Shown here: one piece after another, positions 853-44,134 of the stretch
How the letters are laid out: every line of letters begins with the position of its first letter
How positions within the stretch are numbered: position 1 is the stretch's first letter
Assembly: GCA_002794785.1 (NCBI GenBank)
Contig: NBBA01000008.1
Span: 248,001 to 312,000 of the forward strand
Length of the DNA: 64,000 nt
Reading direction: 5' to 3'
Origin: Coniferiporia sulphurascens
Taxonomy: Eukaryota > Basidiomycota > Agaricomycetes > Hymenochaetales > Hymenochaetaceae
Made by a program: the position numbers and the translations under genes
The notes under the pieces: generated by a model
The model's database searches: none
Told to the model about the DNA's origin: nothing
Seen by the model: only the letters and a program-made list of their open reading frames with translations

Positions 853-1811
853 TTTTTTCAGGTGTCCGAGAGTGCCGATCTGTACTCATAAATATGGAAG
901 AACTTGGACAGCGTTTTCGGTTTTTATTCAAAGAGTAGCCTGCGGAATGAATTTTTTCCATTAAGTACATCCAGGGGGTATCCCGCGCGGGATTCTCCGT
1001 TAATTTTGGGGTCTCGAGAAACTCCACTAAGAACGTTTTTGATCTTAAGCCGCAAATTCGAGCCCATTCGTTAAATTTTGTCCGCAGAATCACTGTTTGC
1101 AGGCACGTAGACTTCACTAGGGCCACATGAACTAGTAGCCGGCCCACCTTCCGTACTAACGAAGAGCTCTCGACATTGGATCTTGCGAAACGCTTCAGTT
1201 TTCAAATTTGAGTTACAAATATAAATCAGGTTTCCGCTGCAGGAGGCCTCAAGTTGACAATGGCGTGTGTCGCAGACTGGGGAGTAATTAACACTCGGGT
1301 GATATCCATAAAGACTCCTATGCATTCGGATGAAAGAAAGCGTGCGTGGGTAAGTGCGCATTTTTTATTCAATGAGAGTTCGTTACCATCTAAACCAGGA
1401 AAAACAGTGTCTCCCTCAATGGCCCGGGACCTGGAGCCCATTCGGACCTTAAGCGAAGGATTGAACTGTATAAAAAAAGAAAGGGTAGTGAATATACATG
1501 TACAGTACATACATCACGATGCACACATGAGGAAGGGTAGAACTTGAGGCCGATCCACTGCAGACGATTGGCAGCGTCTCACGGCTATTTTTATCATCGC
1601 GGGAAGGCGCCCGGCGGGTGTGAATGGAAAGTGTCTACTTAATATTCGAAGCACCATTAGCCTATCATATACTCACAAAAACGGCGACGATTCAATGGTT
1701 GCAATATATACAGTGCGAACACGCAATTTCATTCTACGCTCTCACCGCTCTTTCTGCCCCCCCTCTTTCCGCCTTGACTCTCAGCTCTCCTAAAGACACG
1801 CAAGACACACA
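853..1811. other. Intergenic, no gene seen
   Basis: I see no coding signal with splice logic here. Several overlapping ORFs on both strands near 1.1-1.5 kb have no recognisable content. A TATATA run around 1704 lies about 100 bp upstream of the first SDR start codon and could serve as its promoter TATA element. Confidence 0.6.
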
Positions 1812-3071
1812 ATGGGCCAGACGCTAAAAGTCATCCGCACGCTCTACAGCCAGTCACGGCCGCCGAAGCCCAAGTTCAGCGTAGACGATATCCCGGACCT
1901 CTCGGGCAAGGTCGTCATCGTCACAGGCGGGTACACCGGCATTGGAAAAGAGACTGTGCTCGCGCTGCTGCGCAAGAACGCAAAGGTGTACATTGCAGCG
2001 CGCAGTCGATCGAAGGCGGAGGTGGCAATCGCGGAATTGAAAGAGAAAACAGGAAAGGAGGCGCTGTTCCTTGAGTTAGACCTTGCGAGTTTGAAATCGG
2101 TGAAGAAGGCAGCGGAAGAGTATAGGAGGTAGGCCCTGCCTGAGGTGTCTAATGGTGGATTTCAGGCGTCCTCACTTACGATGAACAGCAAAGAGTCGCA
2201 ACTCCATATCTTGTTTAACAATGGGTGAGCCACTATGTTACGCAATCCGCGTATGCTGCGCTGATATCACCTCTGGCAGAGGTGTTATGATCCCTCCAGT
2301 CGACCAGCTAACCTCGGATGGGTATGACCTCCAATTCGGAACAAACTGCCTCGGTAAGCCAGGTTTACACAATATCATCCTCGAAACAGTGGTACTCATG
2401 TAAACACACCGTTCCCAGGACACTTCTACTTCACACAGCTCCTCCTTCCCTTACTCATTGAGACCGCTAAGTCCGCACCAGAGAAGCACGTGCGCGTGAT
2501 TACGACGTCGTCGTCCGGCCACCACTTCCATGGCCCGGGCATCAAGTGGGACACGCTCAAAGGTGCTAGCGCAGCACGCACGAGGTACGGCACAACGCGG
2601 CTCTATGCACAGAGCAAATATGTGAGTCAAGCGAGTATTCTTTGATGAAATAATTCTTTGACCAAACGTCCTGTTATGCAGGGCAACGTTGTCGTTGCGC
2701 GCGAGCTCGCGAGGCGTTACGGGGACCAGGGTATAATCTCTATTTCGCTCAACCCCGGGAACCTCAAGACAGAGCTCCAGCGACATGTGTCGACCCTGCA
2801 GCTCCGACTCATGGTGAGAATATCCTTCCCACACACAAACCTAGAGCGCGAACGCTGAAGCGCATTCCGTGCGTAGAACCTGATGATGTATCCCGCGCCG
2901 CTAGGTGCGCTGACACAGTTGTGGGCAGGGACGGTGCCTGAGACGGCAGAGTACAACGGAAAATACCTCATTCCTTGGGCGCGCCTCGGTGAGCCGCGGA
3001 ATGACACGCAAGATCCCGAGACGGGCGTGAAGCTGTGGGAATGGCTCGAGGAGCAGGTCAAGGATGTTTGA
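1812..3071 (+). CDS. Short-chain dehydrogenase/reductase (retinol dehydrogenase-like), copy 1
   Basis: Six exons (1812-2128, 2189-2224, 2280-2353, 2419-2621, 2682-2813, 2877-3071) join in frame to 318 aa. The Rossmann glycine motif is [10 protein letters not shown] near residue 40. LFNNG occupies the place of the usual NNAG motif. TTSSSG supplies the likely catalytic serine, and LYAQSK contains the YxxxK active-site pair. This layout is typical of NAD(P)-dependent SDRs of the retinol-dehydrogenase/WW-oxidoreductase-like group, which are abundant in fungi; the substrate is unknown. There is no signal peptide. Intron positions and phases match those of the three paralogous loci at 9.4, 13.6 and 25.3-26.6 kb, so all four descend from one ancestor. 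This copy has no visible lesion. It is the most divergent of the three plus-strand copies and lies 1.7 kb from a hemerythrin gene, a pairing repeated at 25.3-28.5 kb. Confidence 0.88.
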
Positions 3072-8032: not shown

Positions 8033-9390
8033 GAGTGTCCAGAGGACGATGACGATGTTTCTGCTTAGGCTCAGTTCTGGTAAGGGATGTGTGACGGAAT
8101 TGCGCAATAAGTCGTTCTTTGCGCCTAATTAACTAAAAGCGCGGGTATAGAATGTATATTACTAAACTTCAAATCGATATTGGGAAATTGCGGATTTGGG
8201 GCGCGCTGGAGAAGAAGCCTAACTTCTGGGTATTGACCTTCCTTGGAATCAGTAAGGTTAATCGCGAAGAGGCGCGCGGCACATAGTGCCACAAGGGGGA
8301 TCGACACTGCACTGCGGTCAAAGTACCATATAATCATCATGATAGTGGCTGTACATGCTTTGTTATTGTGTACCGTAAGTACTTGTGTTCTAGTGTCCCG
8401 AACTTCTGTCTTGGGCAGTGTGCCGCCTAGTTCTAAATAACTTTAAAAGCCACGAGCTGAAGTTTTGGACCTGGTCGGGCTGTTCTGAACCTCTGGAGTT
8501 TGGAGAAGGGGGGGGGGGGGGGGTTGACCGTACCGTATACTATCGTATGCTCCCTCTTACTACAAAGTCACGTTCCAAGACCAAGACTTAGATTTCCGAG
8601 TCTAGCCTCTACATTTAAGGTATGAAATCGAAAATGTTCTTCTGAAAATATTGCACAGTATATTAATATTCTTCTTGCCACTTTTTTCGGCGAAAATTAG
8701 AGATGTTTCCGGTTTGAGTCTAACTTTTGCCTTGGATAGTGACTTTGTGTAAGAGGGGACATACGATAGTATATGTACTTACGCAGGTGCTTAAACTTCC
8801 GTTCCAAACCTTTCCATCAGCACTGAGTTACCCATTCAGGGAAACTATCCCTGGGTGTGTCATCACTGTTGCAAGCTACCTTATATAGAAGTAAAGGGAT
8901 GACAAGAGAACGTCATAAAAAGTGCACAGGATCGACTGAAAAAGTAGTACGGACCGGAGATTCAAAAAACTATGTGGTGTTCTAAGTCCCTGCGGGATGT
9001 AGCGTCTGCGGACACAGCGGTGGGAATACCTTAGGACTAAGTCGTCAACTTGGATGTAACTCAGACATAAGTTCTTGGTTGAGAAGATTCCGAAAGAGAT
9101 CGGGGATTCCGAATCTGAGTCGGTCTTCGAATCAGCCGCGTCGCGGCAAGCCGAAAAAAAAAACATTGCACACTGGCAAGTGTCTCCGCCTGCCGCTAGT
9201 AGGGCTACGCTTACGCGTCCTCTCCCTTTTAAATAAGTTATTCGATAGCATTTAACTCTGCCTTTCTCCTATTTTCTCGGCCTGCCACCCCCCAGCAGCC
9301 CTGCACGTTCTCCGGTGCCTCGAAGTCCTCGCTCCCGGATCACACCTGTATATATCCACGCACACAAGTCCGGCGAGGAGTAAGGCAACG
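8033..9390. other. Intergenic; MITE-like element, G16 tract, start of duplicated SDR flank
   Basis: No gene is supported. A run of 16 G is at 8508-8523. An imperfect inverted-repeat element follows at about 8529-8784. From about 8792 onward the DNA is similar to 12.90-13.58 kb (shared AAACCTTTCCATCAG, then CCCTGCGGGATGT), which is the 5' flank of SDR copy 3. A TATATA box near 9352 precedes the start codon by about 40 bp. Confidence 0.6.
8529..8784. mobile_element. Probable MITE with imperfect terminal inverted repeats
   Basis: The left end (around 8534) reads TATACTATCGTATG, then YCCCTCTTAC and ACAAAGTCAC. The right end (around 8740-8780) gives the same order on the opposite strand with a few differences and small gaps. 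Both termini lie next to a GTAC. There is no ORF inside. Ends are approximate to a few bases and no clear target duplication could be fixed. The element abuts the left border of the duplicated SDR block. Confidence 0.55.
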
Positions 9391-10726
9391 ATGGGTCAAA
9401 CGCTCGGTTTTATGCGTGCTTTCTGGAACGAAGGCTGGCCACCCGCATCTAAATTCAGCGTCTCCGACATTCCGGACCTCACAGGTAAAGTCGTCATCGT
9501 CACGGGAGGCTATGCCGGCATCGGTCGCGAGACCGTACTTGCGCTGCTCCAGAAGAACGCGAAGGTGTATATTGCGGCGCGTAGTCGTGCAAAGGCAGAG
9601 GTGGCGATTGGGGAGCTGAAGGAGCTGACAGGGAGGGAGGCATTGTTCTTTGAGCTTGACCTTGCGGATTTGAAGTCGGTGAAGAGGCAGCGGAGGAGTT
9701 CCAGAGGTTTGTGCTGTGCTCCACCTCCCCTCCTTCCCATTGTCTTTGCACCGAGTTCTACTAACACAGTTTTATTTGTACGTGTATGATACCTCGGATG
9801 TAAACAGCAAGGAGTCACACCTCCACATCCTATTCAACAACGGGTCAGTCGTCGTGGTACTTGCAGAGACGCGCACTTTGCTAACTTCGCGCAGTGGCGT
9901 CTACTTACCCCCAGTTGAACAGCTGACTGCGGACGGATATGACCTCCAGTTCGGCACGAACGTCCTCGGTAAGATGACATGCCCTCCATTCCGAAATGAA
10001 TCTCATACTTAATCTCATCCTGATTCATCTCCCCAGGCCACTTCTACTTCACGAAGCTCCTCCTGCCCACACTAATCGAGACCGCAAAGACATTACCAGA
10101 AAAAAACGTCCGCGTGATCACCACTGCCTCGATTATGCACTGGGTCCACCGTGACGCCAGCTTCAAATGGGATACACTCAAGGGCCACAACGCCGCTCGC
10201 ACGTCGTATGGCTCGGAGATGCTCTACTGCCAGAGTAAATACGTGAGACCCTTCCCTCCGCGTAGCCTTCTTTTCCGTTCCTCGCTAACCCTTCCCCTCC
10301 ATATTTCAGGGCAACCTGATAATGGCACTTGAGGTCGCACGCCGGTACAGCGACCAGGGTATCGTCTCCATCCCGGTTAACCCAGGTAACATCAAGTCCG
10401 AAGCAGCGCGGTACATGAACCCCATCCGCCGTCGTATAGTCGTAAGTCCCCCCCCTCCCCCCCTTCACTCCGTCACGGAGATGTCCAAAAAGGTCTAACT
10501 CGGTGCCTTGTCTTTATAGGAGTACTTCATACTGCGCCCCACGCCACTGGGCGCACTGACGCAGCTGTGGGCGGGAACGATGCCGGAGACAGCAGAGTAC
10601 AACGGCAAGTACCTTATCCCCTGGGCGCGTCTCGGCGAGCCACGCAAGGAGGCCAAGGATCCTGAGACGGCCGTGAAGCTGTGGGAGTGGCTTGAGGCGC
10701 AGGTTAAAGACGTTATGGAAGAGTGA
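9391..10726 (+). pseudogene. SDR copy 2, frameshifted
   Basis: Exons equivalent to those of copies 1 and 3 are all recognisable (9391-9706, 9808-9843, 9895-9968, 10037-10242, 10310-10441, 10520-10726) with intact splice sites. Exon 1 is 316 nt, whereas copies 1, 3 and 4 have 317. The difference is one missing G near 9686: the stretch encoding VKRAAEEF in copy 3 reads as VKRQRRSS here. The shift carries into exon 2 and breaks the protein before the LFNNG motif. Downstream exons keep clean coding sequence, including LYCQSK and the C-terminal [16 protein letters not shown] region, so the lesion is either recent or a base-call error. Otherwise it is about as close to copy 3 as a recent tandem duplicate would be. 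If the base is restored by error correction, this is a third functional SDR. Confidence 0.78.
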
Positions 10727-12686: not shown

Positions 12687-13587
12687 ACACCAGACCATGC
12701 AGAACCAATTCAAAGTTGCCTTTAAAGTCGTCGCTGCCGCCCATTGATATTGATATTTATTATTACGGCTATTCATGGTTATCAAACGCTATACATACTA
12801 GTGCGTAAGTACTACTGTGCATTGTACTATCAGGATGGCCGCTGGCGTGACCAAAACACAAAATAAAATATCTGTGTCCATTCTGTTGCCACACGCAAAT
12901 GCCAAATTTCCGTTTTCTAAACCTTTCCATCAGCCCTGAGTTACCCCTTTGGAAATATATCCCTGAGTTTGTCGTTTCCGACATTCTGATAAGAGTTTCT
13001 ATAAGCTACTGTATATAGACATAAGTCTGCACATTTATGAGCTGATCAGCAGCAAGAAATTGATGCTTCCTTGCGTTACGGTTTTAAGGAAGTGTACCAG
13101 ATCGACCGGAAAAGTTCGGACCGGAGATTTGAGAAAGAACGACGCGTTCTAAATCCCTGCGGGATGTTGCATCTGCAGACCGACTCGGAGTGTCTTGGCT
13201 AGAGGACTAAATTGTACTAAGGACGAGCTGAGGCTTTCACTCAGACCGAGTCTTTTGGATGAGGAGATCTGGAAAGAGATGGGGAATCCGAGTCAGCAAT
13301 CCAAGTTACTTAAGCATTTTAGCGAGGGGGGACGCGTCGCGGCAAGCCGAGACGTTTTGCTACGCAAGTGCCTCTGCCGACTAGCGCCGCTAGTAGGCTA
13401 CAAACACATGCACCCTCCCTCTCCCCCTTTGACTATGCACACATAAGTTATTGTCTTTAACTCTCTCTTTCCTATTTTCTCGGTTCCTCCACCTCCCAGC
13501 GGCCCCGCACATACCCAGGTGCCTTAAAGTTCTCGTGCCCAGGCTTCACCTATATATATATATCTACGCACGCAAGATAAGGCAACA
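10727..13587. other. Intergenic between SDR copies 2 and 3
   Basis: No gene is supported. The first 250 bp are duplicated 3' flank shared with copy 3 (for example CCTGTAAGTATTTCTGC at 10851 and about 15037). A run of 45 T occupies 12641-12685. From about 12903 the sequence is the duplicated 5' flank of copy 3. A TATATATATATC box at about 13551-13563 lies 25-35 bp upstream of that start codon. The part at 11.2-12.6 kb is AT-richer and I see no recognisable content in it. Confidence 0.55.
12641..12685. repeat. Homopolymer run of 45 T
   Basis: An uninterrupted T45 tract is directly visible. It could be the reverse-strand poly(A) tail of a retroposed sequence or simple slippage. I could not identify a body or target duplication that would prove retroposition. 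Confidence 0.9.
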
Positions 13588-14935
13588 ATGGGCCAAACGC
13601 TCGGTATATTGCGCGCTTTCTGGGACGAAGGCTGGCCACCCGCGTCTAAATTCAGCGTCTCCGACATTCCGGACCTCACGGGCAAGGTCGTCATCGTCAC
13701 AGGAGGCTACGTCGGCCTCGGTCGCGAGACCGTGCTTGCGCTGCTCCAGAAGAACGCGAAGGTGTATATCGCGGCGCGTAGTCGTGCAAAGGCAGAGGTG
13801 GCGATTGGGGAGCTGAAGGAGCTGACAGGGAGGGAGGCATTGTTCTTTGAGCTTGACCTTGCGGATTTGAAGTCGGTGAAGAGGGCGGCGGAAGAGTTCC
13901 AGAGGTCGGTGCCGGGTTTTCCCCTTCCGCCCCTTCTGTTTTCGTGCTGCGTTATACTAATTTAGTTTTTTTTTTTTGTACGCATATGATATCTTGGATG
14001 TAAACAGAAAAGAGTCGCAGCTCCACATCTTATTCAACAACGGGTGAGCCGTCGAGGCATTTGGAGAGACGCGCACTTTGCTAACTTCGCCTTAGCGGCG
14101 TCTACTTACCTCCGGTTGAACAGCTGACCGCAGACGGGTATGACCTCCAGTTCGGCACGAACGTCCTCGGTAAGATAACATGCCCCCCATTCAAAAATAA
14201 ATCCTATACCTAATCTCGCCCCGACTTCTCTCGCCCCAGGCCACTTCTACTTCACGCAGCTCCTTCTACCCACACTGATCGAGACCTCAAAGACGGTACC
14301 AGAAAGACACGTACGCGTGATCACTATCTCGTCTATTATGCACTGGGTCCACCGTGACGCGAGCTTCAAATGGGACACGCTCAAGGGCCACAACGCCGCG
14401 CGCACGTCGTATGGGTCGGAGATGCTCTACTGCCAGAGTAAATACGTGAGACCCTTCCTCACGCATGCCCTTCCCCTTCCTTTCCGCTCCTTGCTGACCC
14501 ATACCTTCTGTACTTCAGGGCAACCTGATAATGGCACTTGAGTTCGCACGCAGGTACGGCGACCAGGGCATCGTCTCCATCCCGGTTAACCCAGGCAGCA
14601 TCAAGACTGAAATGCAGCGGAACATGAACCCCCTCCAGCGTCGTTTCGTCGTAAGTTTGCCTCTTCCCCCCTTCACTCCGTCACTGCGCAAGTCCAAAAA
14701 GGTCTAACTCGGCGCCTCGTCTTTATAGGACTACTTCATACTGCACCCTGCGCCACTGGGCGCACTGACGCAGCTGTGGGCGGGGACGATGCCGGAGACG
14801 GCGGAGTACAACGGCAAGTACCTCATCCCCTGGGCGCGTCTCGGCGAGCCACGCAAGGAGGCCAAGGATCCTGAGACGGCTGTGAAGCTGTGGGAGTGGC
14901 TTGAGGCGCAGGTTAAAGACGTTATGGGCGAGTAA
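13588..14935 (+). CDS. Short-chain dehydrogenase/reductase, copy 3
   Basis: Six exons (13588-13904, 14008-14043, 14096-14169, 14240-14445, 14519-14650, 14729-14935) join in frame to 323 aa. Motifs follow copy 1: [10 protein letters not shown] cofactor loop, LFNNG, a serine in ITISSIMHW, and LYCQSK with the YxxxK pair. The N-terminus [18 protein letters not shown] is shared almost unchanged with copies 2 and 4. The whole gene plus flanks forms a tandem duplicate with copy 2, displaced by about 4.1-4.2 kb. It is the intact member of that pair. A TATA-like run lies just upstream. The substrate is unknown; an NAD(P)-dependent oxidation or reduction of a small alcohol, ketone or lipid is expected from the family. 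Confidence 0.88.
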
Positions 14936-25295: not shown

Positions 25296-26599
25296 TCACT
25301 CGCCTTCGCCCATAACGTCTTTAACCTGCGCCTCAAGCCATTCCCAGAGCTTCACAGCCGTCTCTGGATCCTTGGCCTCCTTGCGCGGCTCACCAACGCG
25401 CGCCCAGGGGATGAGATACTTGCCGTTGTACGCCGCCGTCTCCGGCATCGTCCCCGCCCACAGCTGCGTCAGTGCGCCCATCGGCGCGGGGTACAAGATT
25501 AGGTCATACGTAAACAGTGTTGGGTTGTGGACTGCTTAGAGGAGTGCATAGAGGAGGGAGGGGGAGAAACTTACGGTTCTCCAGCGCTGGAAGGGGCTCA
25601 TGTGGCGCTGCATTTCGGTCTTGATGTTACCTGGGTTAATCGGGATGGAGATGATACCCTGATCTCCGTACCGGCGCGCGAGCTCGAGCGCAGTTATCAG
25701 GTTGCCCTGAGATATGGGTCAGCAGGGAACGGGGAAGGGGGAGGGGGGGGAGAGTCTCACGTATTTGCTCTGGGCATAGAGTGACTCCGAGCCGTACGCT
25801 GTGCGCGCGCTGTGTTTGAGTGTGTCCCACATGAAGCCAGGGTCGCGGTGGAACCAGTGTGTGACTGAGGCGGTTGTGATCACGCGTACGTGTTTCTCTG
25901 GTACGACCTTGGCTGTCTCGATAAGCGTGGGGATGAGGAGCTTTGTGAAGTAGAAGTGGTCCTGGCCCCGGTGCGAGATTAGGTATAAAATTCTTTTTCG
26001 GACTGGAGGGCATGTTAACTTACCGAGGACGTTCGTGCCGAACTGGAGGTCGTACCCGTCTGCAGTTAGCTGTTCGACCGGCGGTAGGAAGACGCCACTG
26101 AGGTGAGGTTAGCATAACGTACGTCTCTCCGAGTACGACGCGACTTACCCGTTGTTGAATAGAATGTGGAGTTGCGACTCTTTGCTGTTTACATCCCAGA
26201 TATCAAACACATACAAAGAAAACTGAATCAATACGATCCAGCACGAAAATGGATGGTGAGAGAAAGAGAGTTTAACACAAACCTCTGGAACTCCTCTACC
26301 GCCCTCTTCATCGACTTCAAATCCGCAAGGTCAAGCTCAAAGAACAACGCCTCCCTCCCCGTCAGCTCCTTCAGTTCCCCGATCACCACCTCTGCCTTTG
26401 CACTACTACGCGCCGCAATATACACCTTTGCGTTCTTTTGGAGCAGCGCAAGCACGGTCTCGCGGCCGATGCCGGTGTATCCGCCTGTGACGATGGTGAT
26501 TTTGCCAGTGAGGTCCGGGATATCGGAGACGTTGAATTTGGACTTGGGCGGCGCGCTTTCGTCCCAGAAAGCGCGCATCATGCAGAGTTTATGGCTCAT
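25296..26599 (-). pseudogene. SDR copy 4, disrupted
   Basis: Minus-strand equivalents of all six exons are present: 26599-26283 (317 nt), 26184-26149, 26097-26024, 25961-25761, 25706-25575 and about 25505-25296. The start MSHKLCMMRAFWDE and the motifs [10 protein letters not shown] and LYAQSK align with the other copies. Two lesions are visible. Exon 4 begins CAG/GACCAC where copy 1 has CAG/GACAC, one extra C that puts exon 3 and exon 4 out of frame. The acceptor before exon 6 reads CGTATGAC where copy 1 has CGTAGAAC, so the AG is lost. The nearest upstream AGs (near 25534) lead to a stop. A weak alternative donor (AAC/GTCCTC) could repair the first lesion but not the second. It is head-to-head with hemerythrin copy 2. 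Confidence 0.72.
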
Positions 26600-27583
26600 T
26601 ATTGCCTTACTTGTTGGTCTTGCGTGTGTAGATATATGAGGCGAAGCACCAGGGCTTTGTAGCACCGGAGACGCGGCGGGGCTGCTGGGAAATAGTGGAG
26701 GGCGGAATATAGAGCCATGGATTTGAGCAGTGGTATAAATAGGGAAGAGAGAGTTAGAGACGATACCAGGCGGCACACTAGTACTGCCCAAAACAGAAGT
26801 TTGGAACTTTACACTGACACTTACAAGTACACATCACAAAGCATGTACAGCCACTCAAGCCTACCGCCAATCATTCTCAGTAAAACACAAGCTAGTCAGG
26901 ATTAATCAGGATTTTTAGTCACGGCTGTATGGTCATTAATGGTGGAAAGAAAGTGGCAAGACAATTTGTATAGGATTAGGTTGTACTTTTGGCCGCAAGT
27001 CGATTGGGATCCATTAATATTGTGGCGCTGTGTGTGCCAGTGGCTGCGTGCTTTTAGTTGATAATTACCATACAGTCGAATCCCTCGATTTGCATATGCA
27101 ATTCAAATTTCACGGGGTCATGCATACATGTATAGAGGGACTCGATTTTATTATGTACATGAAATGTGAACTTCACCAAAGTTAGCTGTTCGAACTCTCT
27201 TCTAATAACCCTAGGCCTGTTCGTAACCTATTTCCCGCTTGTGTCCTTCACACGCCCTATTGAGCCCAAGCAAAGACATCCTAGCATAGCGTGCCTTTCT
27301 CAATTCCAATTATCTGATTCCTTATTGGCTGCGGGGTGTATGCACGTGACACGCCTTACGGTTTGTGGAGTGTACCCGCTCCCCCGATGAATTCCTGATG
27401 GCAAGAGAAGACTCTCTCGGGATCTGACAGGCTGCTAATGGGGAAACACAACCATAAACAATTCCGCTCCGAAGTGCGTTCATGACGTCAACACGGGCGG
27501 GAGCCGTCGTCGTCGTCATACTGTACGTCGCCGAATAATATATAACTGGAGGAGCCACACGTATATTATTATAGTGACTCTGT
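26600..27583. other. Intergenic between divergent SDR copy 4 and hemerythrin copy 2
   Basis: This is shared upstream DNA of two divergent loci. A CACGTG box at about 27343-27348 lies 240 bp upstream of the hemerythrin start. At 27073-27149 a short inverted pair (TCGAATCCCTCGAT and, on the other strand, TCGAGTCCCTCTAT) is flanked by TA and may be a remnant of a pogo/Tc1-like element. I see nothing else. Confidence 0.45.
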
Positions 27584-37160: not shown

Positions 37161-39123
37161 TTACGCGGGTACCGCGAGGGCCTGCTGATGGCCTCCAATA
37201 AAGTAAGGCGTACGGAATACTCTCTCGAGTTTCCATCCGGAGTTGACCAAGATCCTGTTCAGCTGCTCCAGAGTGCGCTCCTGGCCATTCACTAGAGTCA
37301 TCATCTGAAATTTCATATTTTTCGTCAGTACGCGTCGGATGGCTAAAAAGCGAGAAGGACGGTGGTCCAGCCCACCTGAAGGTCGCTCATGTATCCGAAC
37401 GTGCCGCCGTGCCCTACGTTGGGCAACAAGGGTGCCGGTGGTCTGGGCATGTCGTTACCCGGGATTTGTAGCGTCTCTTCCTCGCACGCGTATGATAGGA
37501 TTGCATCGATGATCAAGAGTCGGGTATCTGGACGCGCCGCGACGCGTAGTGTCTTGAGAATCAGCCCGCATTGGGCGTCTGACCAGTCGTGCAGAATCAT
37601 GCGCATGAAGAAAATTGTCGCGTCCGTTACCGGTTGCGACTTGAAAAAGTCGTTAGCTGGGGAAAGACCGAGGTGAATTACTGGTGATTTTTCCTAGTAG
37701 AGAAACATTGTCAAACCTTGGAAAGATATGATGCCGTTGTCGATTGCTTCTGGGAACCTCTCCTTCCAGAACTAATGAAATTTAAGACTATCAACATCGA
37801 CAATGAAAGTGGGCTACAGAAGAGACGAACCTGCTTGGCTTGGCCAATTGTTTCTTCTCTGTCCTGGAGTACGAATTTCAAATGCGGATGCGCTCGTGCA
37901 AGAATCATCGACTGGGATCCTACGCCTGCTCCTACATCGACGATCTTGCTTCCAGCTGGTAAACTTGCCCAATCAAAACCTTAACAAGCGTGCATATATA
38001 AGACAAAATTATCCAAAGGATAACACAAGGGGGAATCGTGACGCTACCTTTGAGAAGGATGTCCTGTGGGATAAGCTTCGACCCGCCCTCCATAGCAAGC
38101 GAGAAGAGCGCTAGTTCAGCCTTGTTCTCGGGTTGGTCGAACCACCCCCATATAGGAAGGTTCGTCCTGTACGCGAGGTTGAACGGAGTCTTGTCCACAT
38201 CAAAGGAGTTGGTGAGATTAGGGTTTAGTACTGTGTCCGTCAGGTATGCCGATGACTTGAAGGCATGGGTCGTGCTGGTGTCACGGTGGCCAAGTCAGGC
38301 GTAGGGACGTGGCGAGACCGACTGGACGTGTACTCACAAGTGGGAAATCGTGGCCGCAACGCCAGACGTTCCAACGTACCTTTCCTCTGGGCTGCTCTCC
38401 AACGTGAGCGGGTGAAATTGTAGAGTAACGGATAGCAGGCGATACTCACTTTGCACGCAATTCCGCTACGCTCTTACCGGTATCGAGTAAAGACGAAATA
38501 CGATTGTTTGCGAAAACATCGGGCGCGACTTCGGTGAAGATGTGCTCGGTCGCAAGAAGACGCAGAGCCCGCGCTGGAGCGCATCAGAGTCCAGACTCAG
38601 TGAACGATAGTGGCTACTCAAGAGGGGAGAGGCAAGCTCACATAGCTTGTTTGCGTTAACCTTTGCCTTCCCTGCAATCAGGTCGACATGAAGTCCCTAT
38701 ATTTCAAGTCAGCAATTGGCGCCTCGACAATTGATAGGTTTTGAATCACTACCTTCGGACCGGCCTCCTTTAAGATCTCGACTGTGTTTGCCTCGCTAGC
38801 AAATCGTATCGCAGACGGCACGTGAAACTAGAAGATAAAGTTTAGAACGGGCGAGCACATAACGTAGGACGGAGTTTATGCACCGATCCAGCCTTTATCA
38901 TAAGAGACAACGGAGGTGGCCGGACGAGCGCTGTTAATTGTGCAGCAGCAGCAACGATGTCGGTGGATGCCTGGAGGACGGCGGGATCCATCCGAGCGAC
39001 CTCACTCTCCGGAGAGAAGGGTTCGCTGAGCGGCGGGAAAGCAACATTTCGTGTAGAGCAACTCCCTTCTATGCGTCTGACGGAGTCGTTGATGAGTTTG
39101 GCTAGGGCTTTTAGTTCATCCAT
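37161..39123 (-). CDS. SAM-dependent O-methyltransferase (fungal secondary-metabolism type)
   Basis: Ten minus-strand exons (39123-38884, 38827-38753, 38696-38642, 38573-38450, 38391-38338, 38274-38048, 37979-37831, 37771-37717, 37656-37376, 37304-37161) join in frame to 467 aa. The N-terminal half is the winged-helix dimerisation domain (ARALRLLATEHIFTEVAP, FKSSAYLTDTVLNP). The C-terminal half binds S-adenosylmethionine through KIVDVGAGVGSQS, with VLQDREETIGQAKQ as the acidic loop. MRMILHDWSDAQC contains the catalytic histidine of plant/fungal class O-methyltransferases (sterigmatocystin or caffeate O-methyltransferase group). The methyl acceptor is likely a phenolic or polyketide compound and cannot be named. 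No other secondary-metabolism gene is adjacent, so cluster membership is not indicated. Confidence 0.9.
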
Positions 39124-40094
39124 TGAGGCTATGTGGGTGAATGCAATATAGCAATGCTTTCAGAGTGCCTATTTATGAGACCAGGAGTCAGTCTAAATGA
39201 TGTTCCGGTTCTGTTCGTGAGCGGTGATAATCTTTGATAGTGAGGGAACATAATGGCAAAAACGTACTTTATAGTTGGCGGACGAATACAACAGGAGGGC
39301 GTGGACCTGGTCAACTATGCGCTCGCCGCGGATTGTATTCCGACGAAGTGTCCGACTCGGAATTTCAGTAATCCCATACGAAATGTCGTCACGGGGCTAG
39401 GGAACGAAGATGACGAAATGTATTGGCGTCGACTCGAATGGATTAATCGTCCCAGCGTCGATCTGTAGATCATTCGCACTTATATTAAGCCATATATTTA
39501 CTCAACGTTGTTCAAATGGCATCTATACTCTCCAAGCTAACAGGAGTTGGGTGCACGACGTCGCATTAGCCCTGGCCTGAAAAACTAGTCTAGGTAAAAC
39601 TCTATTTGAAATATTTAGTACAAAGGCACGCCCCCGCCATGGTCCCCGTGTCCGGCGCTCATAGAAGCAACTTCATTCAAGCATTCATTCGGGCGCTTGC
39701 CAGTAGGAGCGCCGACGTTGCCCGCTGATGTTGTATAACTATTATCCCCATGGATCTATCCTTGTGCAGTTGAAGCCTGCAATCGCCGAGCATACTTCGT
39801 ATATGCAATCAACAGCAAGAATATCCTGATGTCCGCATACAATGTGAAGTATTCACGGGCAAGACCGAAAAAAAGAAGTGGATGTACTGTAGTGATATAA
39901 AGATACAGAATACACGAAGTTGGAAATAATAAAAATAAAAATAAAACGAAGTCGACGTTCAATATCAGATCAACCTATCCCGCCCGTACGCCTCAATACA
40001 ATCGTTATATCTGAACCGAATAGTGCGTCAGCCAAAACTGTGTAGTGAAAAATGGTTTTAGGCACGTACCTGGGCTATTCTTCGAGCATGCAAA
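39124..40094. other. Intergenic, no gene seen
   Basis: Nothing is supported. Short ORFs are present without recognisable content. The end nearest 40.09 kb is the 3' flank of the pheromone precursor candidate. Confidence 0.5.
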
Positions 40095-40319
40095 TTAAGC
40101 GATTACGCAGTAAGTCTGGCCGTCCCCACCCCTCTCCTCGGAATCGGGGGCCTCATCATCATCGGGGCTGGTGCAAGCGTCGAAGGGTGTCCGCGCGACG
40201 ACACAATACGTTGTGCCGCTCCCTCCTCCGGGTCTGTCATTCGCAACGGGCACAGCTGTACTAGCCTCTTCGCGCGAGGAGGCAGGGGTCGGTAGAGCGA
40301 CGGGGGTGAACAAGTCCAT
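40095..40319 (-). CDS. Candidate lipopeptide mating pheromone precursor
   Basis: An intronless 74-residue ORF starts MDLFTPVALPTPASSREE and ends GGDGQTYCVIA followed by TAA. The last four residues CVIA form a CaaX box for farnesylation, proteolytic trimming and carboxymethylation. Size, an N-terminal MD-F-T and the Tyr-Cys-Val-Ile-Ala end are typical of basidiomycete B-locus pheromone precursors. EER just before GGDGQTYC could be the charged processing site. A second, similar block inside (DRPGGGSGTTYCVVA, residues about 29-43) repeats the terminal pattern, suggesting an internal duplication; only the terminal one can be prenylated as a CaaX box. Such peptides are secreted and sensed by STE3-type receptors. 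Another prenylated small protein is the main alternative. Confidence 0.68.
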   Translation of the reverse strand: MDLFTPVALPTPASSREEASTAVPVANDRPGGGSGTTYCVVARTPFDACTSPDDDEAPDSEERGGDGQTYCVIA

Positions 40320-40477
40320 TGTGATAGTGACGGTACTTTGTGTTGGTTGGGTGCTGAAGAGGTATTGGATTGTGTGGTGAGCAGCGAAGGGGTGAGACTT
40401 TGTCGAGTTGGATGGGATGTATTTAGCTTGTCTTCGGTGGCCGATATTTATACGCCCAGGGCACGCATGAGGGGGGG

Positions 40478-40678
40478 TCATGTCGATACACAATGGGTTC
40501 CGGAGCCGCTGCCCACCTTACTCACCTCGCACCCGCCCTCATGTATCGGCAGCGCAGGGACGGGGGAAGACAATAGTTTCGGCCCTGGAAATCTGCAGGG
40601 GGAGTCGCGCCAGACGTCCCCGTTGAGGGAGGCGGGGCGGACAACTGCGAATCCGTAGCGGCGAAGTGGGTTCAGCAT
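40478..40678 (-). CDS. Small ORF with C-terminal CaaX-like CVST
   Basis: A 66-residue ORF from an ATG at 40678-40676 ends KVGSGSGTHCVST. The last four residues, C-V-S-T, place a cysteine at the CaaX position, and the Gly/Ser run before it resembles the GGGSGTTYC block of the neighbouring pheromone candidate. The N-terminal part has no MD-type start. The GTGAGT inside the codons for EVS is also a plausible splice donor, so the end could be intronic. It may be a degenerate second pheromone gene or chance. Confidence 0.28.
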   Translation of the reverse strand: MLNPLRRYGFAVVRPASLNGDVWRDSPCRFPGPKLLSSPVPALPIHEGGCEVSKVGSGSGTHCVST

Positions 40679-40959
40679 CTCCTCATTGCAGGGTCGCGAT
40701 ATTAGTTTCCACACGTCTTGAGGTCTGGATAAGAGTCCTCGAATAGGAACAGCGCGAAGCGTGGAGGAGGGTTTGGGCACTTCGGGCGACCGCTGTGCTG
40801 TGGGTGAATCCAACGACGTCTTTCATGTGACGTATGCTGTTCTCGGGAAGTTAGGAGGGATGGAGAGCCTACAGGAAACAAAGAAAATGAGGAGGTGGAT
40901 GACAGACTAAGATTTCTTGGAGTAACGGCAGGGCAAAAGTATCCGAATTTCCAATGAGA

Positions 40960-41110
40960 CATGCGGCGAATCGTGCAGAAAGAAGCGGTACCCATTATTA
41001 CTCGGTTTCGAAAGCACCTCGGAGAGCAGGTCCTTGAATTGGGCGCGGATAAGGTGAGACACAGTGAGACACCCAGTATGCAATATATCCCTGTCCCAAA
41101 ATCAGGACGG
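40960..41110 (-). pseudogene. Possible relic of an STE3-type pheromone receptor (TM5/third loop)
   Basis: On the minus strand one frame reads FGTGIYCILG (around 41100-41070) and a second frame, after a short gap, reads LIRAQFKDLLSE (around 41050-41018), followed by SNNGYRFFL. In basidiomycete STE3 receptors, a YC-x-L motif at the end of TM5 is followed within about 10-15 residues by an RRAQF-x-x-LLS segment and then RYxRLM. The order and spacing fit, but the frame is broken and I cannot find the other membrane segments. The neighbouring pheromone candidate supports the idea. It is a short match from memory and may be coincidence. Confidence 0.35.
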
Positions 41111-42934
41111 GGGAGGAGGGGTATTAAAGAAACGAAATTAAGACTGTTGTGTATAGAAACTTCCGTCGAGTTGAAAAAGTTATGCGTTCGCAGATTTAGC
41201 CAGTGCAAGTAGTTATACTCATTACCATTGTGACTGAGTAATCTTCTCTAGCGGATGTATTACGAAGATTCAGATAACGAGTCCGTTTCGACAGTGCAGA
41301 TCTTCTGGGTTGTTCTTTTGAAATTCGAGTGAGACATGCCAGTGGCCTTTCAAAATATGACAATTTTCTTCGTATTTGCAATTACCAGCTATGACATTGA
41401 GGATCTGTTTCGGGGACGGTATCATTGGAGAGCACGTCTAAGAAGGCCGTCTCAATGAATGGAAAAAGAAAGACCTACAGTTACGCAACAAAGACTACTG
41501 GCAGTGGTGACTACGGCGACTCCGAGTCGTTAGAACTACGGTCTTGGATTGCGGTTTTCGTTATGTCGAAAGAAAACACTCCGTCAATAGAGCTCTTATC
41601 CCCCGTGTAAGTTTGACAAGTTTTCCCCTCCGGATAAATCGACAGAGTGAACGAAAGTCGAGGAATCATCAGTTTGTTTTTTTCGGGTGCGGTCGTTTGG
41701 TCAGTGCAGAATCCGTGGGAGATGAAACAGCGTCACGTGAAGCCGCGATGGTCTCGTGACCTCTCGAAGAGTGGCTAACGGCCTGCTGGTGGCACCGCTG
41801 GGTAGCTTCCGTCTTCCCTTCACGTTGCTCAACTTCTTAAAGACATACCCTTGCTTCCATAAAGAACTATCACAAACTATCACATCAATCTTGGTACTCT
41901 CTGGCTCCGAAATGGTCATCGAAATCTCTAGGGCTGGCCCGATAAACAAGAACAAATTCGACAAATTATTGCTGTCAGACCGTGGATTTCCAACTCGGAC
42001 GTGGGGCGGACGGAAACTTGAAGACCTGCGCTGGCCTTCGAGGAAGGAGGACTGCCAGTGGTATAAAGACGGAAACGGAGAGGCTGGCCATCATTATCGT
42101 GGCCTATGGACAAAAAGCAAGAGAAACAAGAAAAATAGGAGGCGAAGGCGCAATCAGAAAGCAGGTCTACTTCCCCCACATTTCGGTCCTATCTCTCCGC
42201 GAGGCATACGGAAATCAAAGCTTAAAGGAGGAAGAAACCATCGCCGACCTTTTAACCCCACCCAAGTCAACCAACGAAGTGGCACGCATCGTACAGAGGT
42301 CATTCTGCGAACTGAGGAGACTATATCAAACGGATGTAACAACTGCGCGCCGTCGGCCAACAACAATCGTAGCATAATCTTGGATGAACAAGTGTGCGTG
42401 CACCGCACTGTGATGCTTTCGGCCACTTCTTGTACCTCTTCTATCCCGGAAAATGGGGACCGGATTCACTGTCCGAAAGTAAACACTCTAAGCTGCGCTT
42501 GGATCCTTGATACACTTGCGGTCCTCCGTCTATGATGCCACTGTACATTTACATATCAGCATACATCCACACCCTTCTAGGACATCTTCTATTCCCACTC
42601 CGCCATCGCTTCGCAATATCTCCGCCGCGTTGCATTCTTTATAAATCATTAAATAAAGAGATACTATTACTTCCGAATGTATTCTAAACATATGCATATA
42701 ATGCGCTTTCCTATACAAAACTTCAACCGCTGTATAGCGGTATAACCCACGTATTGTTTCGAATTTTGAGGATGAGGATAAGAATTGTGGTGCGACCTTT
42801 AACTAGGGCACCATACATGTGAGGGGGTTTCTTGCATACCGCAGGACCGAAGCGCATTGCAAGCTAACTTCCCGAAAAAGGAAATCGCCCGTTTCCTAGA
42901 TGATCTGCAGTGCTACAAGTTTTCTGCAACTACC

Positions 42935-44134
<1,200 letters not shown>

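What the first reader, a model, noticed from the sequence alone, without database searches (positions are those of the whole stretch)
40095..41110. Possible mating-type B locus fragment: pheromone precursor beside an STE3 relic
A 74-residue ORF ending in YCVIA with an MD-F-T start is, by established knowledge of basidiomycete pheromone genes, a strong pheromone precursor candidate. Within 1.1 kb on the same strand a second CaaX-ending ORF and a broken YC-L ... RAQFKDLLS segment resemble a pheromone gene and a decayed receptor. Together they suggest a duplicated or degenerate B sublocus between an O-methyltransferase and DIM1.
Basis: partly seen in the sequence, partly recalled or inferred. Interest (0 to 1): 0.85.

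Follow-up and report, generated by a model that had tools for sequence, protein, structure and literature searches.

The report
Two-in-one fungal pheromone-like peptide gene
This stretch of a fungal genome holds a small gene for what looks like a lipid-tailed signalling peptide, with two peptide units in one precursor; it is not shown to be a piece of the mating-type receptor locus, but it belongs to a little-noticed class of double precursors also present in mushrooms.

Summary
The 74-residue ORF at 40095-40319(-) is real: Pfam PF08015 (Fungal mating-type pheromone), 30 bits, cut-off 22. The B-locus reading fails: no STE3 match in six frames of 39001-43004; the STE3 matches found in the genome lie about 485 kb away on the same contig. 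A profile without this gene's units scores them 33.1 and 30.8 bits; the next best 14-mer in the window scores 9.3. Third codon positions have diverged between the units more than first/second (p=0.03 over 14 codons, 0.004 over the last six), so the inner CaaX looks selected. At least six such dispersed genes exist here, two double. Searches gave 55 distinct doubles, ours included; the six with species names are Agaricales; 45 of 55 have K/R/H at +1/+2 after the inner CaaX (shuffle mean 5.5). Best reading: a pheromone-like precursor giving two farnesyl peptides, laid out like rhodotorucine A precursors; maturation of the inner unit is inferred. Ten searches of an open library listed no paper seen to describe this in Agaricomycetes.

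The parts
40095..40319 (-). two-unit pheromone-like precursor CDS, 74 aa plus stop
   Evidence: PF08015 30 bits, cut-off 22; first of four matches in the genome's PF08015 search, 22.8 bits, the only one over the cut-off
40308..40319 (-). N-terminal MDLF (MD-x-F)
   Evidence: M1, D2 and F4 invariant among five of the six genes; the sixth begins MDSF
40194..40235 (-). unit 1: R-PGGGSGTTYCVVA with internal CaaX (CVVA, 40194-40205); charged pair DR before it
   Evidence: 33.1 bits with a profile that leaves out this gene's units; coordinates checked
40191..40193 (-). Arg43 directly after the internal CaaX, candidate cleavage residue
   Evidence: K/R/H at +1/+2 in 45 of 55 distinct double precursors against a shuffle mean of 5.5
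40140..40190 (-). acidic linker between the units (TPFDACTSPDDDEAPDS)
   Evidence: Cys-to-Cys distance 32 residues here, 22-27 in 53 of 55
40098..40139 (-). unit 2: EER-GGDGQTYCVIA with terminal CaaX (CVIA, 40098-40109)
   Evidence: 30.8 bits with the same profile
40447..40452 (-). TATA box (TATAAA) 133 bp before the ATG
   Evidence: TATAWA at -200 to -50 in 5 of 6 pheromone genes of this genome (not C1); 6.0% of 20,000 random 150-nt segments
40011..40069 (-). predicted 59-nt intron in the 3' UTR (GTACGT..CTGAC..TTCAG)
   Evidence: intron-like signal after the stop in 4 of 6 genes (not C5, C22); 4.7% of 20,000 random segments. Not confirmed by RNA
   Evidence: no Pfam match
37343..37693 (-). 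exon of flanking O-methyltransferase gene
   Evidence: PF00891, E=8.9e-11
43401..43904 (+). exon of flanking rRNA adenine dimethylase gene (DIM1-like)
   Evidence: PF00398, E=3.8e-35

Best explanation
A gene for a pheromone-like lipopeptide precursor with two units, most likely not a mating-type determinant. Shown by sequence: MDxF start; two units, each with a charged dipeptide (DR, EER) 7-9 residues before the Cys of a Tyr-Cys-aliphatic-aliphatic-Ala box; Arg directly after the inner box; promoter and 3'-UTR signals shared with most of five dispersed paralogues. Inferred: the chain is cut at the charged dipeptides and behind the inner box at Arg43, the basic residue is trimmed, and both CaaX boxes are farnesylated, shortened and methylated. 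That would give two different farnesyl peptides, about PGGGSGTTYC and GGDGQTYC, exported and sensed by STE3-type receptors, plausibly those of the distant cluster at C8:772-781 kb. It works like the tandem precursors of rhodotorucine A, in which pheromone units are separated by CaaX-like spacers.
For: PF08015 above cut-off. Both units are outliers with a profile that leaves them out. Six paralogues found in this genome, two double. 57 of 71 sequences examined (69 database hits at E<=10 plus this genome's two doubles), 55 distinct, are double (queries biased to doubles). K/R/H at +1/+2 after the inner CaaX in 45 of 55, shuffle mean 5.5, maximum 14 in 5,000; 13 K/R/H among the other 1,072 inter-cysteine residues (57 rows). 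Identity of the 10 residues before Cys 8.5 within and 4.6 between precursors. Between the two units of this gene, third codon positions differ more than first/second: 10 of 14 against 10 of 28 over the whole unit (p=0.03), 5 of 6 against 1 of 12 over TYCV[VI]A (p=0.004). TATA box and 3'-UTR intron signal; the three expressed of four A. bisporus pheromone-like genes have a 3'-UTR intron (passage of PMC8305134).
Against: No peptide or RNA data. 9 of 55 doubles have Q and no basic residue at +1/+2 and one has neither, so the site is not strictly basic; His is a poor tryptic residue (recalled). The inner X position is looser (A, F, S, T, C) than the outer one (A in 53 of 55). Farnesylation is cytosolic while Kex2-type cleavage is in the secretory path (recalled), so the inner cut needs an unknown protease. 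Loss of the Kex2-type sites of Trichoderma HPP1 did not abolish fruiting or ascospore discharge (PMC3068285). The codon test has few positions, its p depends on the stretch chosen (0.004 to 0.06 over five choices), and outside TYCV[VI]A the units differ in residues. C19 and C22 score below the Pfam cut-off (18.7 and 14.1).
Confidence: 0.58

Rival explanations
1. Only the C-terminal unit is matured; the inner unit is a duplicated spacer that stays similar because of gene conversion or recent duplication.
For: CaaX enzymes act at C termini (recalled). Unit copies within a precursor are nearly identical (mean 8.5 of 10), as homogenisation would give; in C19 the boxes differ at 1 of 6 third and 1 of 12 first/second positions.
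Against: In the window gene the TYCV[VI]A stretches differ at 5 of 6 third codon positions with one conservative residue change, not a recent copy. K/R/H behind the inner box recurs in 45 of 55.
Confidence: 0.25
2. A mating-type (B, P/R) pheromone gene: either a sublocus fragment with STE3 relic, or a mating-type-linked gene far from its receptors.
For: Real pheromone-family gene; same contig as the STE3 cluster; in a cereal rust a 76-aa mfa1 lies 0.54 Mb from STE3.2-3 (PMC10977897). No pheromone gene was seen in the 40 kb around the STE3 cluster, so the genome's mating pheromones, if any, must lie elsewhere or be split by introns.
Against: No STE3 listed in six frames of 39001-43004; about 485 kb from the cluster; non-mating-type-like core; five paralogues on five other contigs.
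Confidence: 0.08
3. An intron inside the ORF removes one unit, so that each transcript gives a single-unit precursor.
For: In-frame GT-AG pairs exist.
Against: None of the GT-AG pairs listed for either double gene (40-200 nt) has a CTRAY branch-point motif; good intron signals lie behind the stop instead; the double ORF recurs in 55 distinct precursors.
Confidence: 0.05
4. Decaying pseudogene or chance ORF.
For: The units of this gene are among the five least alike of the 55 (5 of 10 residues, counted by hand from the rows), and its linker is the longest.
Against: Intact ORF; both CaaX boxes kept despite third-position divergence; TATA and 3'-UTR intron signals; Pfam and profile scores.
Confidence: 0.04

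Closest known systems
[quoted passage not shown] cinerea, L. bicolor, A. bisporus; passages of PMC8305134)
   Same: MDxF start, charged dipeptide, Gly-rich core ending in C, CaaX, location outside the receptor cluster, 3'-UTR intron signal
   Different: the four A. bisporus precursors are 44-54 aa with the CaaX at the C terminus; this one carries two units with different cores. Seven Pycnoporus precursors of 39-65 aa (PMC4101180) are in a figure not held, so a double among them cannot be excluded
Rhodotorucine A precursors RHA of Rhodosporidium toruloides (Akada 1989, as described in PMC3068285; the paper itself is not held)
   Same: tandem units separated by CaaX-like spacers; a Lys after the inner CaaX in RHA is recalled, not from a call
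   Different: red yeast, mating-type gene, other core sequence, more copies (recalled); here two units and an acidic linker with its own charged dipeptide
Puccinia MFA1 (three tandem repeats) and Microbotryum precursors (passages of PMC10977897)
   Same: several similar pheromone units in one precursor
   Different: associated with STE3.2-3 at the P/R locus; other subphylum (recalled)
Trichoderma reesei HPP1, h-type precursors (passages of PMC3068285); Verticillium Ppg2-like with internal CaaX-like motifs (passage of PMC11077750)
   Same: several CaaX-like motif copies, one at the C terminus, with putative basic cleavage sites
   Different: ascomycetes; HPP1 motif (LI)GC(TS)VM with Kex2 sites
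Doubles of Collybia nuda P0009, Lyophyllum shimeji P0033, Tricholomella constricta P0046, Dendrothele bispora P0043 (UniRef 'Pheromone'), Hebeloma cylindrosporum P0044, Candolleomyces efflorescens P0060 (hypothetical or uncharacterised)
   Same: double-unit layout with inner CaaX plus K/R/H at +1/+2 in all six
   Different: inner box CVVF, CVVA or CVVT; units more alike than here in all but P0060 (by eye)

Membership tests
Fungal mating-type pheromone family (Pfam PF08015) | score above the curated cut-off | tested here: met
   30 bits against 22; 22.8 in the genome search; 20.6, below it, when the whole 4-kb frame with X for stops is scanned
Fungal mating-type pheromone family (Pfam PF08015) | MDxF start, C-terminal CaaX, charged dipeptide upstream | tested here: met
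   MDLF, CVIA, EER/DR read; criteria as in passages of PMC8305134
Fungal mating-type pheromone family (Pfam PF08015) | mature farnesylated peptide | not testable with these tools
   needs mass spectrometry
Mating-type B (P/R) locus | STE3 receptor gene adjacent | tested here: not met
Mating-type B (P/R) locus | alleles differ between mating types | not testable with these tools
   one genome only
[quoted passage not shown]
   GGGSGTTYC and, less close, GGDGQTYC by reading; consensus from a passage of PMC8305134
[quoted passage not shown]
   about 485 kb away; not decisive, see the rust mfa1 case
[quoted passage not shown]
   signal in this gene and in 4 of 6 genes in all; no RNA
Tandem-unit precursors (rhodotorucine type) | two or more units, each with a CaaX-like box, separated by a spacer | tested here: met
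   cleavage itself not tested
Tandem-unit precursors (rhodotorucine type) | units of (nearly) identical sequence | tested here: not met
   this gene 5 of 10 residues alike (rows); mean of the 55 doubles 8.5
Tandem-unit precursors (rhodotorucine type) | common descent with RHA genes | not tested
   no RHA sequence was compared; filed as works-like only

The most novel reading that the evidence does not exclude
Agaricomycetes hold a widespread, undescribed class of two-in-one farnesyl-peptide precursors in which an internal CaaX box is freed by a cut at a conserved neighbouring basic (or Gln) residue, so that prenylation-ready ends are made from the middle of a chain; the window's gene goes a step further and encodes two different ligands in one precursor, used outside mating-type recognition.
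Probability: 0.4. Interest if true: 0.75.

Novelty: new variant of a known kind. Interest (0 to 1): 0.6.

Why it matters
The enzymes that mature the tandem rhodotorucine A precursor were stated to be unknown in 2010 (PMC3068285). A family in mushrooms with a recurrent residue pattern behind the inner CaaX gives a testable cleavage rule, and a reason to look for a protease acting before prenylation. It also suggests that ORF screens keyed to a terminal CaaX overlook half of such precursors, and it adds candidate ligands for non-mating-type STE3 receptors, which PMC4101180 calls still unexplored.

Tried and rejected
STE3 relic: six-frame Pfam scan of 39001-43004 at E<=10, genome PF02076 search and tblastn of six STE3 exons, cut at six of the nine PF02076 matches, against the window (best E 0.075 at 62.0-62.4 kb, none in 40-41.1 kb): rejected.

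Second CaaX ORF at 40478-40678 as a pheromone gene: no Pfam match, ends CVST, DNA alignment not significant. A relic unit stays possible but weak.

Pheromone genes beside the STE3 cluster: ORFs ending in Cys plus three residues in C8:755001-795000 were listed (first Met within 150 residues shown); I saw none that combines an MD start with an aliphatic CaaX. Intron-split genes would be missed.

Weak PF08015 match at C10:1409627 has a stop inside and no CaaX ending: rejected. Pattern hit at C9:260952 has TGG where the stop should be and, by eye, lies out of frame in an ATP-synthase-beta-like gene (gene name recalled): rejected. C18:360026 (E 0.18) shows no CaaX ending: rejected. Pattern hit at C8:281896 lies in the ERG4/ERG24 exon of the window: rejected.

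Internal splicing: no GT-AG pair listed had a branch-point motif.

A database search with the window ORF alone gave nothing; alignment queries worked.

Limits of the 55 count: queries were precursors of this genome (5 of its 6 genes) and then 11 doubles, this gene among them (where only the 7985 candidates sharing most words were scored), so the share of doubles is not a natural frequency and the profile, though built without this gene's units, rests on relatives found partly with it. All hits to E<=10 were kept. Most hits are unnamed. Identical trimmed rows were collapsed (57 to 55); 14 of 71 are single by the motif used (P0063 of Hypsizygus keeps unit 1 and linker but not unit 2). The set holds close relatives: loosely clustered, the 57 fall into 14 groups, one of 30 rows, and the group-weighted share with K/R/H at +1/+2 is 0.79. 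Three rows (P0015, P0038, P0056) carry a tail after the second box.

My notebook entry ranks the 6.9-bit hit loosely; searches are right.

Full report
What is there. The ORF 40095-40319 on the minus strand (74 aa, MDLFTPVALP...TYCVIA) exists as described. It matches PF08015, Fungal mating-type pheromone, with 30 bits against a cut-off of 22, and is the only one of four matches over the cut-off in a PF08015 search of the whole 39.3-Mb genome.

Two units, not one. The precursor has two pheromone units: ND-R-PGGGSGTTYCVVA, then R and an acidic linker, then EE-R-GGDGQTYCVIA and the stop. A position profile built from units of other precursors, without this gene's two, gives them 33.1 and 30.8 bits; the best other 14-mer in six frames of the 64-kb window has 9.3. 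Some of those precursors were found with queries that included this gene. Between the two units, third codon positions differ at 10 of 14 and first/second at 10 of 28 (Fisher p=0.03); over the last six codons, TYCV[VI]A, at 5 of 6 and 1 of 12 (p=0.004), the one being V to I; p ranges from 0.004 to 0.06 over the five stretches tried. A copy under no constraint would have lost its letters at a similar pace, so the inner CaaX seems to have been kept by selection; the test is small and the stretch was chosen after seeing the sequence.

Gene signals. TATAAA lies 133 bp before the ATG (CACAATGG), and an intron signal GTACGT..CTGAC..TTCAG (59 nt) starts at nucleotide 26 after the stop. TATAWA at -200 to -50 is present in 5 of the 6 pheromone genes of this genome (6.0% of random segments), and an intron-like signal behind the stop in 4 of 6 (4.7% of random segments). 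PMC8305134 reports a 3'-UTR intron for the three expressed of four A. bisporus pheromone-like genes (passage).

Relatives in the genome. Protein, family and pattern searches (sequences) give six genes, each on another contig: C1:3977330 (40 aa), C5:1780027 (38 aa), C8:288098 (this one, 74 aa), C11:745667 (44 aa), C19:61808 (66 aa), C22:235850 (39 aa). C8 and C19 are double. C19 and C22 alone stay below the Pfam cut-off (18.7 and 14.1 bits). Counts are lower bounds.

No B locus seen here. The nine PF02076 (STE3) matches reported for the genome lie at C8:772.7-781.3 kb, six over the cut-off, about 485 kb from the gene. Six frames of 39001-43004 with X for stops list no STE3 at E<=10, only PF08015 (20.6 bits). 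Six STE3 exons of the cluster give no tblastn hit in 40-41.1 kb. No MDxF/CaaX ORF was seen in the 40 kb around the STE3 cluster. Against my reading: in a cereal rust a 76-aa tandem-type mfa1 lies 0.54 Mb from STE3.2-3 (PMC10977897), so distance alone does not rule out a mating-type role.

A class of double precursors. Two alignment searches (22 and 62 hits, 69 proteins in all) plus the two genes here make 71 sequences; 57 have two boxes, 55 after collapsing identical rows. Named owners of doubles are Collybia nuda, Lyophyllum shimeji, Dendrothele bispora, Hebeloma cylindrosporum, Tricholomella constricta and Candolleomyces efflorescens, all Agaricales. The other database rows bear no species name. 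In the 55, the cysteines lie 22-27 residues apart in 53 (32 in this gene, 16 in P0062); the inner box is CVVA 25, CVVF 9, CVIA 8, CVVS 5, CVIS 4, CVVT 2, CVVC 1, CIVS 1; the 10 residues before Cys agree 8.5 of 10 within a precursor and 4.6 between. K, R or H stands at +1 or +2 after the inner box in 45 of 55; shuffling each inter-cysteine stretch gives a mean of 5.5 and at most 14 in 5,000 trials. Elsewhere between the cysteines 13 of 1,072 residues are K/R/H (57 rows). Nine of the other ten have Q at +1 and one (P0062) has neither. Grouped loosely into 14 clusters, the weighted share is 0.79. The linker of C19 (ARPEVDV) resembles those of P0001 (QRPDVPV) and P0002 (QRPEQDVPV), by eye, which hints at an inherited layout; no tree was made.

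How it most likely works. Shown: the gene, the two units, a recurrent basic residue, and a hint of constraint on the inner box. Inferred: cleavage at the charged dipeptides and behind Arg43, trimming, farnesylation of both boxes, two peptides of different sequence, export and sensing by STE3-type receptors. The main gap is how an internal CaaX becomes a C terminus before prenylation; for rhodotorucine A the enzymes were likewise unknown in 2010 (PMC3068285, passages).

Compared with what is known. Tandem farnesyl-pheromone precursors are described for Rhodosporidium and Trichoderma (PMC3068285), red yeasts (PMC3236058), Puccinia and Microbotryum (PMC10977897), and internal CaaX-like motifs for Verticillium (PMC11077750) (passages). 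Non-mating-type pheromone-like precursors are described for C. cinerea, L. bicolor and A. bisporus (PMC8305134) and suspected in Pycnoporus (PMC4101180; seven precursors of 39-65 aa in a figure not held, so a double there cannot be excluded) (passages). Passages of PMC5473757, PMC10607315, PMC4915694, PMC12387193, PMC8686365 and PMC7329392 showed no double precursor. Ten searches of the held open library listed no paper seen to describe double precursors in Agaricomycetes; only listings and passages were read, supplements were not available, and most subscription papers are not held. Four named doubles carry the UniRef label Pheromone, so the sequences are public though the layout seems undescribed. 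Hence: new variant of a known kind.

Verdict. No sign of a B-locus fragment was found; the interest lies in the double-unit precursor and the class it belongs to.

Noticed in passing
G000 C8:772.7-781.3 kb (L006, L007, L001-L005, L008): Cluster of STE3 receptor genes (three by grouping the nine matches) with no MDxF/aliphatic-CaaX ORF seen in C8:755-795 kb; unusual for a P/R locus, unless the pheromone genes are intron-split.
   Followed up: partly
L021 4808-5008 (C19:61808): Second double precursor of this genome, 66 aa, inner CVIA followed by AR; around the box its two units are nearly identical in DNA (2 of 18 positions differ).
   Followed up: partly
window 40481-40522 (-): GSGSGTHCVST* in the promoter region scores 6.9 bits with the pheromone-unit profile (one of two non-pheromone hits at or above this in 164 kb); possible relic unit.
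   Followed up: partly
window 1794-2132, 9256-9789, 13528-13965 (+); 26228-26833 (-): Four similar short-chain-dehydrogenase-like ORFs (DIPDL(S/T)GK..IVTGGY...; family name recalled) in the first 27 kb: an apparent local gene family.
   Followed up: no
P0015, P0038, P0056: Database doubles that continue with W and a tail after the second CaaX; possibly a stop read as Trp by the source's gene caller.
   Followed up: no
P0063 (Hypsizygus marmoreus): Unit 1 and the FAKED linker are present but unit 2 is missing; possibly a mis-predicted double gene.
   Followed up: no
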